Made by a program: the position numbers and the translations under genes. The notes beneath the pieces are model-generated. The model was not told the origin of the DNA and did not search any database. It saw nothing but the letters and a program-made list of their open reading frames with translations. This document shows positions 5,027 through 6,566 of a DNA stretch of 7,679 nt, one piece after another. Each line of letters opens with the position of its first letter. The first letter of the stretch is position 1. This DNA is from an uncultured Chloroflexota bacterium (GTDB lineage Bacteria; Chloroflexota; Anaerolineae; Aggregatilineales; Phototrophicaceae): NCBI GenBank assembly GCA_903904765.1, contig CAIVEA010000353.1, positions 1 through 7,679 of the forward strand, given 5' to 3'.

Positions 5027-5044
5027 CAACCCTGTGATAAGTCT

Positions 5045-5076
5045 GTTATATTAAACACATTCGCGTTAAATATAAC
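5045..5076. promoter_or_regulatory. 32-bp near-perfect dyad, probable autoregulatory operator
   Basis: GTTATATTAAAC (5045-5056) and GTTAAATATAAC (5065-5076) are 12-bp inverted arms with a single mismatch, separated by ACATTCGC. The dyad ends 11 nt before the ATG of the regulator at 5088. The left arm contains a possible -10 (TATATT, 5047-5052) with a weak -35 (ATGCAA, 5024-5029, 17-bp spacer). A dimer bound here would cover the -10 region and transcription start, as expected for self-repression. The dyad is directly visible; its role as operator is inferred from position and from DeoR-family habits. Confidence 0.6.
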
Positions 5077-5087
5077 AAGCTGTACTC

Positions 5088-5663
5088 ATGGAACCCACGA
5101 AACACAGCGATCAGCGGCGGGATGCCATTTTGAACTGGCTGACCGAATACCGCGTCCTCTCGATTGACGATCTGGCTTCGCGCTTGAATGTGTCCATCAT
5201 GACCGTTCATCGTGATCTGGAAACGCTGGTCAGCAGTGGCAGGGTTGAAAAGAGTTACGGCAAGGTACGGATGCGCTCTGAAGCGCCTCAAGCGTCTCGC
5301 GGGTCACTGTGCGCGATGTGCGGCACAGCGCCTTCAGACCGTACCATATTCACCATTCATCAGCAATCCGGTGGCCTGCTGACGGCCTGCTGCGCGCACT
5401 GCGGCATGATCTTATTGACCAAGCAATCCGGCAACTATTCGGCGCTCACCAAAGATTTTCTGCACGGGCGCATGGTCAATGTTCTACAAGCGTATTTCGT
5501 GGTGAACAGTCGCATTCAAGCCTGCTGCATACCGAGCGTGTTGTGTTTCGCCTCGGTGGAGGATGCAAACGCTTTTCAACTGGGGTTCGGTGGCGAAGTA
5601 TGGTCATTCGAGGAGACAACTTCGCATCTGACGATGACGCATCATCCCCACAGTGACAAGTGA
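5088..5663 (+). CDS. DeoR-type helix-turn-helix regulator with a NosL-like metal-binding domain
   Basis: A 191-residue protein. Residues 8-63 form a DeoR-type winged helix: RRDAILNWL, then LASRLNVSIMTVHRDLETL (29-47, recognition helix around S36-L44), then a GRVEKSYGKV wing. The usual DeoR C-terminal sugar-phosphate sensor (about 160 residues with a Rossmann-like fold) is absent. Residues 75-176 instead read like NosL: CAMCG (C75, C78), a GG-containing strand leading to CCAHCGM (C101, C102, C105, M107), then DFLHGRMVN...AYFVV...FASVEDANAF...GFGGEVWSFEE. This matches the NosL pattern of D-x-x-x-G-x-x-I/V-D/N, A-Y-Y-V-V-G, a DA-containing helix and GG-x-V-x-x-F-E-E. A C146-C147 pair falls where NosL has Met-Gly, and the tail holds H180, M183, H185, H186 and H188. 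NosL binds Cu(I), so this may be a copper or thiophilic-metal sensor, though zinc or redox sensing is also possible. No clear Shine-Dalgarno precedes the ATG. No metal genes lie nearby. Confidence 0.85.
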   Translation: MEPTKHSDQRRDAILNWLTEYRVLSIDDLASRLNVSIMTVHRDLETLVSSGRVEKSYGKVRMRSEAPQASRGSLCAMCGTAPSDRTIFTIHQQSGGLLTACCAHCGMILLTKQSGNYSALTKDFLHGRMVNVLQAYFVVNSRIQACCIPSVLCFASVEDANAFQLGFGGEVWSFEETTSHLTMTHHPHSDK

Positions 5664-5824
5664 CAGCGGTGCATGCAGCATGATCGAACGAGAACAGCCC
5701 GGAGTATTCCGGTTATCTGCTCAAACGGATGGATTTTAGCGGTACAAGAAGGCATCCCCGATTACGTGACCGATTGTTAGCGGGAGAGCCGTCCACCTAT
5801 CCGAATGCAGCAGCGTTCTACTGC

Positions 5825-5855
5825 AAAGGATACCCGCCGCCCCGGGTGTCCTTTT
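5825..5855. terminator. Bidirectional intrinsic terminator between convergent genes
   Basis: AAAGGATACCC (5825-5835) pairs with GGGTGTCCTTT (5844-5854), an 11-bp stem with one G-U pair and an 8-nt GC-rich loop, followed by a fourth T. On the minus strand the same hairpin ends with a TTT run. It sits between the stop of the plus-strand regulator (5663) and the stop of the minus-strand toxin (5890), so it can serve both. The 160 bases from 5664 to 5824 hold no supported gene, only a 5-bp hairpin CCGGA-gtat-TCCGG (5699-5712). Confidence 0.6.
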
Positions 5856-5889: not shown

Positions 5890-6273
5890 TTACAGATACG
5901 GTTGAATGGCGAGGCTGCCGATCAGAGGTTGCATATCCTTGAGGTTGTGGGTGTACAGCGGCACTTGCAACCGATGGGCTACCGAAGCAATCAAGCAGTC
6001 CTCTTTGCCGATGTGGTGGCTGAACTGAAACCGTTCCAACTGCGCCATCGCCCATCGTTGATCGTCCGCTGTAGGATAAAGCAGGTCGAATCTGTCCAAC
6101 AACGTCCTGCATGCTGTTAAATGAGCCTTGTTGGGGGAACCCTCTATCACTTCCAGCCATGTCACCGAACAGACCGAAAGACGCGCAGGCAAGTTATCTA
6201 CTCACGCTCTAGCAACCGCATTACGGCGGAAATAATGCAAAATGACAGCGGTATCCACAATCCCAACGCTCAT
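5890..6273 (-). pseudogene. vapC: PIN-domain (VapC-type) toxin interrupted by an in-frame TGA
   Basis: The minus strand from ATG 6273 to TAA 5890 is one continuous frame of 128 codons, a normal VapC length, with a single TGA at codon 24 (6204-6202). The first part reads MSVGIVDTAVILHYFRRNAVARA and the frame resumes as VDNLPARLSVCSVTWLEVIEG. PIN active-site acidic residues can be placed at D7 (IVDT), E41 (TWLE), D92 (GKEDCLIA) and D113 (THNLKDM), so all four would be present if the stop were absent. Many PIN proteins have a Trp in this A-x-x-W-L-x-x-L position, so TGG to TGA is the likely change. PIN toxins are Mg-dependent RNases that cleave tRNA, rRNA or mRNA. As it stands translation would yield a 23-residue peptide. 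Re-initiation at TTG 6192 would lack D7 and probably be inactive. A sequencing error would have the same appearance. Confidence 0.8.
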
Positions 6274-6566
6274 TCGTCCTCACCCCAATCGCCCAAACGC
6301 TGGCGACGCTGTTCTGCACGATGGTGCTTCACCCACTCAACGGGGTCTTCAATCTCCGGGTACTTCGTCTCAATCGGGTTAAGTTCATCCATCAACTGAT
6401 TGAGCATCTTGCCCCAATGTCCTTCAGTGGGCGGTTGGGGAACAGGTGTAGGTTGAAGATCACGCTCGACAGATGAGACTACCTGCTCGATCAGATGTAA
6501 CCGTTCACGGGGAGGCAGTTGGAGCGCCATCGCCAGTGCTTCTTGATACAGTTCAGTGATCGTCAT
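6270..6566 (-). CDS. Antitoxin partner of the PIN toxin
   Basis: A 98-residue acidic-and-basic mosaic protein. The N-terminal part (MTITELYQEALAMALQLPPRERLHLIEQVV, about 1-31) looks like a short helical dimerisation or DNA-binding segment. A Pro-rich linker follows at about 38-48. The C-terminal part has YPEIEDPVEWVKHHR and an EQRRQRLGDW stretch (about 69-94), likely the toxin-wrapping region. Its TGA stop (6272-6270) overlaps the toxin ATG (6273-6271) as ATGA, the usual arrangement for translational coupling in toxin-antitoxin operons. A perfect AGGAGGT (complement of 6576-6582) lies 9 nt before the ATG. The antitoxin role rests on position and size; I do not recognise a named antitoxin family. 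The frame is fully open although its toxin is broken. Confidence 0.78.
   Translation of the reverse strand: MTITELYQEALAMALQLPPRERLHLIEQVVSSVERDLQPTPVPQPPTEGHWGKMLNQLMDELNPIETKYPEIEDPVEWVKHHRAEQRRQRLGDWGEDE

What the first reader, a model, noticed from the sequence alone, without database searches (positions are those of the whole stretch)
5088..5663. DeoR-type DNA-binding domain fused to a NosL-like, Cys/His-rich domain
DeoR regulators normally sense sugar phosphates through a DeoRC domain. Here that domain is missing. Residues 75-176 carry CxxCG, CCxxCGM, the AYFVV and FASxEDA motifs and a GGEVxxFEE ending, which align by eye with NosL, the Cu(I) chaperone of nitrous oxide reductase, including a His/Met-rich tail. 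A Cys-Cys pair (146-147) replaces the Met-Gly of NosL. This predicts a one-component metal (copper-like) or thiol sensor built from a metallochaperone fold, which is not a standard sensor class.
Basis: partly seen in the sequence, partly recalled or inferred. Interest (0 to 1): 0.8.

Follow-up and report, generated by a model that had tools for sequence, protein, structure and literature searches.

The report
YcnK-type copper-sensing gene repressor
A small bacterial gene switch joins a DNA-binding head to a copper-chaperone-like tail with fixed cysteines; it looks like a new member of a copper-sensing class known from Bacillus subtilis.

The parts
5088..5663 (+). regulator gene, 191 aa, YcnK-type
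   Evidence: ORF; 41 homologues at E<=0.001 counting itself; relatives in 80 kept loci
5115..5276 (+). DeoR-type winged helix, residues 10-63
   Evidence: PF08220 41.8 bits, cut-off 21
5277..5630 (+). NosL-fold domain, residues 64-181
5310..5321 (+). C75-x2-C78, the stretch that aligns with NosL CxxCxM
   Evidence: 119 of 119; alignments
5388..5402 (+). C101 C102 A H104 C105 cluster, likely metal ligands
   Evidence: C101, C102, C105 in 119 of 119, H104 in 117; ligand role is inference
5523..5528 (+). C146-C147; C147 at the place of a NosL Met
   Evidence: 118 and 119 of 119; alignments
5044..5077 (.). palindrome TGTTATATT-N16-AATATAACA, likely operator, ending 10 bases before the ATG
   Evidence: inverted repeat found; same palindrome with at most one mismatch upstream of the regulator in 12 of 80 loci
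5800..5852 (+). 53 bases like the end of L001 mbnP and the hairpin after it; possible relic of a lost mbnP and likely terminator
   Evidence: blastn 79%, E 1.4e-6 to L001 9509-9561; no coding remains of MbnP/MbnH/PCuAC found (best E 0.14)

Best explanation
A YcnK-type one-component regulator. Its winged helix binds the palindrome at 5044-5077 in its own promoter. Its NosL-fold tail binds copper, probably Cu(I), through the conserved cysteines. By analogy with B. subtilis YcnK, copper-loaded protein represses, so copper shortage turns on genes for copper acquisition and delivery; in relatives these are PCuAC, SCO1, YtkA, CopCD/DUF1775 and MbnP. Shown by computation: the two domains, cysteine conservation, copper neighbourhood of relatives, a shared palindrome at the regulator's promoter. 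Inferred: DNA binding to it, copper as ligand, sign of control, oligomeric state. In the window itself the only visible target is its own gene.
For: Pfam and fold; cysteines in 119 of 119; copper clusters 66 of 297 genes within two places against 5 of 509 at four or more, or 63 and 4 without PepSY, which is not a copper family (families named by Pfam); five ycnKJI-like operons; mbnP next to the collinear relative L001; palindrome upstream of the regulator in 13 sources against 0,0,0,0,1 hits in five shuffles of 1,069,100 bases; exact TTGACA 17-18 bases before its TATATT in 6 of 13; YcnK described as Cu-dependent repressor (PMC8424229, passage).
Against: No copper gene lies beside it in the window. 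36 of 79 loci have no counted family within two genes. 27 of the 39 loci titled as Chloroflexota and all 41 others lack the palindrome at one mismatch or less. The window's own -35 is poor (3 mismatches). One passage says Cu(I) is proposed to antagonise YcnK (PMC13344008), another that ycnKJI is down in copper plenty (PMC12154828). No metal-binding data.
Confidence: 0.75

Rival explanations
1. Same protein, opposite sign: the apo form represses and copper releases it, so excess copper turns on copper-binding proteins.
For: A passage says Cu(I) is proposed to antagonise the YcnK repressor (PMC13344008). PCuAC and MbnP bind copper (family knowledge, recalled).
Against: ycnKJI is reported up in copper starvation and down in copper plenty (PMC12154828, passage). 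Neighbours are acquisition and delivery families rather than efflux ATPases among the recurrent clusters examined (I did not search for efflux ATPases as such).
Confidence: 0.18
2. A sensor of another thiol-loving signal, such as Zn(II), Hg(II) or oxidation, using the same cysteines.
For: The fold derives from TRASH-like treble clefs that bind zinc (PMC4999995, passages), and MerB of the same fold handles mercury.
Against: Recurrent neighbours are copper families.
Confidence: 0.06
3. Not a regulator: a cytoplasmic chaperone or enzyme with a vestigial winged helix, as in MerB.
For: Fold match to NosL and MerB.
Against: S36, T39, R42, D43 of the helix region are invariant in 39 of 39 and a palindrome recurs at the regulator's promoter.
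Confidence: 0.02

Closest known systems
YcnK of Bacillus subtilis (repressor of ycnKJI)
   Same: DeoR-type head plus NosL-like tail in regulators of ycnKJI-like operons; same cysteine set across both groups
   Different: About 30-35% identity to the Bacillus relatives; in Chloroflexota the neighbours are mainly PCuAC and SCO1, once MbnP; none in the window. The B. subtilis 168 protein itself was not compared, and its operator is not known to me from any call
NosL, copper chaperone of nitrous oxide reductase
   Different: DNA-binding head, no CxM Met (T80), extra cysteines at 101-105 and 146-147, no nos genes in the window
MerB, organomercurial lyase
   Same: NosL-type fold after a winged-helix-like part; tail profile match E 6.3e-5
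   Different: No MerB Pfam hit; whole-chain superposition is poor (TM 0.32-0.41, rmsd 14-17 A); catalytic residues not shown to coincide
Archaeal CopR (HTH plus TRASH domain)
   Same: One-component copper regulator; in P. furiosus with a His-rich end (PMC7830388, passages); C78-x22-C101-x3-C105 fits the TRASH spacing as I recall it
   Different: No TRASH Pfam hit; doubled NosL fold instead of a single small TRASH domain

Membership tests
YcnK-type copper repressor | DeoR-type head followed by NosL-fold tail | tested here: met
   same pair in 10 of 10 loci regulators scanned, NosL E<=0.015, over cut-off in 4
YcnK-type copper repressor | Homology over full length to regulators of ycnKJI-like operons | tested here: met
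   tblastn to L037, L058, L068, L072, L080, E 1e-24 or better; next genes CopCD-type and DUF1775
YcnK-type copper repressor | Copper genes next to it | tested here: not met
   Window neighbours: GAF histidine kinase, EamA transporter, unassigned frames, isocitrate/isopropylmalate dehydrogenase. Met in 44 of 79 relatives, PepSY counted
YcnK-type copper repressor | Copper-dependent repression | not testable with these tools
   Needs protein and DNA work
DeoR family (sugar-phosphate type) | DeoR-type HTH | tested here: met
   PF08220 41.8 bits
DeoR family (sugar-phosphate type) | C-terminal DeoRC sensor domain | tested here: not met
   No such hit at E<=10; tail is NosL-like
NosL copper chaperone | NosL domain | tested here: met
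   PF05573 30.7 bits over cut-off 24
NosL copper chaperone | CXM copper-binding motif | tested here: not met
   T80 at the Met place; M in 15 of 119 relatives; motif from PMC6530538
NosL copper chaperone | Exported lipoprotein encoded with nos genes | tested here: not met
   The protein begins with a cytoplasmic DNA-binding head; no nos gene in the window
MerB | MerB family profile | tested here: not met
   No PF03243 hit listed at E<=10
MerB | Catalytic Cys-Asp-Cys (recalled) | tested here: inconclusive
   No residue-level structural alignment was available; hhalign places them differently from a collinear reading
TRASH-domain regulator (archaeal CopR) | TRASH domain | tested here: inconclusive
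   No TRASH hit; Cys spacing fits as recalled; relative L037 has a sub-cut-off zf-FCS hit, E 0.011

The most novel reading that the evidence does not exclude
The YcnK-type regulators are the nearest sequence relatives of MerB and the bridge between it and NosL: a metal-sensing transcription factor, or its ancestor, became an organomercury-cleaving enzyme that kept the winged-helix-like part and reused the sensor's cysteine site. Regulator tail to NosL E 1.8e-13, regulator tail to MerB E 6.3e-5 (2e-4 with query and template exchanged), MerB to NosL only 0.055; 0 of 150 column shuffles reach the MerB score. The head match alone is not specific, since ordinary DeoR heads match MerB's at E 2.1e-4.
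Probability: 0.35. Interest if true: 0.7.

Novelty: new member of a known kind. Interest (0 to 1): 0.45.

Why it matters
It carries a little-studied copper sensor from Bacillus into Chloroflexota, Aquificota and other groups, ties it to copper-delivery genes for respiration (PCuAC, SCO1) and once to MbnP, and offers a concrete operator to test. [quoted passage not shown] this family may be one.

Tried and rejected
Own-genome search: none held. A new sensor class: rejected because of YcnK. CCxxCGM as the NosL motif: rejected by profile alignment. Single-sequence search of solved structures: only weak NosL hits, best E 0.02; the profile gave 1.7e-5. Coding remains of mbnP, mbnH or PCuAC in the window: best E 0.14. 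The named families of L001's second downstream gene are CCP_MauG and PCuAC; 'mbnH-like' is my name for it, and the NCBIfam scan meant to check it failed and was not repeated.

Papers: 'NosL'+'DeoR'+'copper' 0 papers; 'YcnK' 29 papers, 20 listed; at least two of YcnK, NosL, MerB, 'DeoR family' 12 papers, 11 listed. From those listings and the passages I read, none is seen to link YcnK with the NosL/MerB fold, but the two primary YcnK papers (2009, 2012) are not held, nor is the 2014 paper on the origin of MerB (known here from citations), so I cannot say the link is unpublished.

Dropped rows: of 41 homologues, P0003 (159 aa) and P0041 (107 aa) were left out of A1 as partial. Weak points: copper families were named after the recurrent clusters were seen; ORF calling was crude; the half-site was chosen after reading upstream sequences, and shuffles do not correct for that; the genome scan used the CCxHCG stretch as one of two probes, so conservation at 101-105 is partly selected for among the 80 loci. 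In one search two control heads were read on the wrong strand; redone.

Full report

Conservation. The protein search returned 41 proteins at E<=0.001, the query included; 39 were aligned. By record title 39 of the 80 are Chloroflexota; the rest are Bacillota, Aquificota, deltaproteobacterial groups, one Acidobacteria and one Actinomycetota record. In the 119 proteins of both sets (the window's included) C75, C78, C101, C102, C105, C147 and P149 are in all, C146 in 118, H104 in 117. In 201 genomes from the phylum of L001's genome, that genome included, matches over 180 bits are in 6, one of them with a stop inside; 106 of 201 have some match, and those listed below 60 bits nearly all cover the head only, in other proteins.

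Correcting the motif reading. Profile alignment to PDB NosL chains and to six NosL proteins of unnamed Chloroflexota genomes puts NosL's CxxCxM on C75AMC78GT80 and its Ala-Met or Pro-Met on C146-C147. In NosL the Cys and Met of CXM are the likely Cu(I) ligands, and clade II proteins have CXXCXM (PMC6530538, passages). The regulators keep the Cys, mostly lose the Met (M in 15 of 119 at that place) and add cysteines at 101-105 and 146-147. A cytoplasmic Cu(I) site is the natural reading (inference).

A known kind. In L037, L058, L068, L072 and L080 the regulator is followed by a CopCD-type and a DUF1775 gene; in L037 Pfam shows CopC-CopD-YtkA and DUF1775. That is the ycnKJI order described for B. 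subtilis (PMC8424229, PMC12154828; passages). NosL matches 10 of 10 loci regulators scanned at E<=0.015, over the cut-off in 4. The named control genome of B. subtilis rings for the NosL family; that this is YcnK is inference. L067, titled B. subtilis, has a YtkA-type gene rather than ycnJ next to its regulator.

Neighbourhood. Genes of nine cluster models (PCuAC, SCO1, two YtkA, CopCD, DUF1775, MbnP, MbnH-like, PepSY) are 66 of 297 within two places of the regulator and 5 of 509 at four or more; 44 of 79 loci have one nearby. Without PepSY this is 63, 4 and 43. Within two places PCuAC counts 22 genes and SCO1 13. The other 36 of 79 loci show none. L001, the 79% relative, is collinear with the window on both sides. 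There the regulator is followed by mbnP (PF20243) and a gene with PCuAC and CCP_MauG domains, and preceded by a divergent frame with several CxxCH motifs, seen by eye. The window has none of these. The 53 bases at 5800-5852 resemble the end of L001's mbnP and its hairpin (79%, E 1.4e-6), which hints at loss in the window's lineage; part of that likeness is a hairpin that L001 carries twice.

Likely operator. Upstream of the gene the longest inverted repeat is 5044-5056/5065-5077; one 8-base pair further up is the only other found. TGTTATATT-N(2-40)-AATATAACA with at most one mismatch gives 16 pairings at 14 places in 13 sources in 1,069,100 bases; five dinucleotide shuffles gave 0, 0, 0, 0 and 1, and 0 of 20,000 shuffles of the window's 149-base spacer gave perfect arms. 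All 13 sources have it upstream of the regulator: about 165 bases away in L012, and in L020 and L024 about 20 bases before the matched start although inside my over-long ORF call. All 12 loci are Chloroflexota; 27 other Chloroflexota loci lack it. Gaps 16 and 26 make up 12 of 16, one helical turn apart. In 6 of 13 an exact TTGACA lies 17-18 bases before the TATATT of the left arm, and in 8 of 13 one with at most 2 mismatches, against 12% of background positions, so the site would overlap the -10 box. The window's -35 is poor. L022 has a second site before a PCuAC gene; two-mismatch sites follow the regulator in L013 and L047, where SCO1 is the next gene.

Mechanism. The best reading is a self-controlled repressor of copper acquisition and delivery with copper as co-repressor, by analogy with YcnK. 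The sign is open: ycnKJI is said to be down in copper plenty (PMC12154828), yet another passage has Cu(I) antagonise YcnK (PMC13344008).

MerB. NosL and MerB are known to share a fold, derived by duplication of TRASH-like treble clefs (PMC4999995, passages). Here the regulator tail matches NosL (E 1.8e-13, probability 98) and MerB (E 6.3e-5, probability 64.5; 2e-4 and 46.6 the other way round), while my MerB and NosL sets do not find each other (E 0.055); swapped-domain controls give 0.25 to 0.71. None of 150 column shuffles reached the MerB score, and the reversed alignment gave E 0.28. Head to head gives 1.4e-5, but ordinary DeoR heads reach 2.1e-4, so that part is not specific.

Noticed in passing
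L001:9689-11686: A di-haem peroxidase (CCP_MauG) with a PCuAC domain in front of it in one frame, right after mbnP; reads like a copper chaperone fused to an mbnH-like enzyme.
   Followed up: no
window 5890-6192 (-): Frame similar to a 131-aa frame of L001 (11704-12099, -) that looks by eye like a PIN/VapC-type toxin; no Pfam hit in the window's frame; with the small frame at 6270-6566 (-) it may be a toxin-antitoxin pair.
   Followed up: no
window 5827-5852; L001 9536-9561 and 9588-9613: The same GC-rich hairpin once in the window and twice around the end of mbnP in L001; terminator or small repeat element.
   Followed up: partly
L034 regulator frame: 279-aa frame with Cys in place of H104; next genes PepSY and SCO1; start codon uncertain.
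   Followed up: no
L036, L042, L051, L074: Regulator followed by a frame of 276-289 aa and one of 624-639 aa, not copper families; the L036 frames look by eye like a GGDEF-type protein and a [2Fe-2S]/NADH dehydrogenase-type protein.
   Followed up: no
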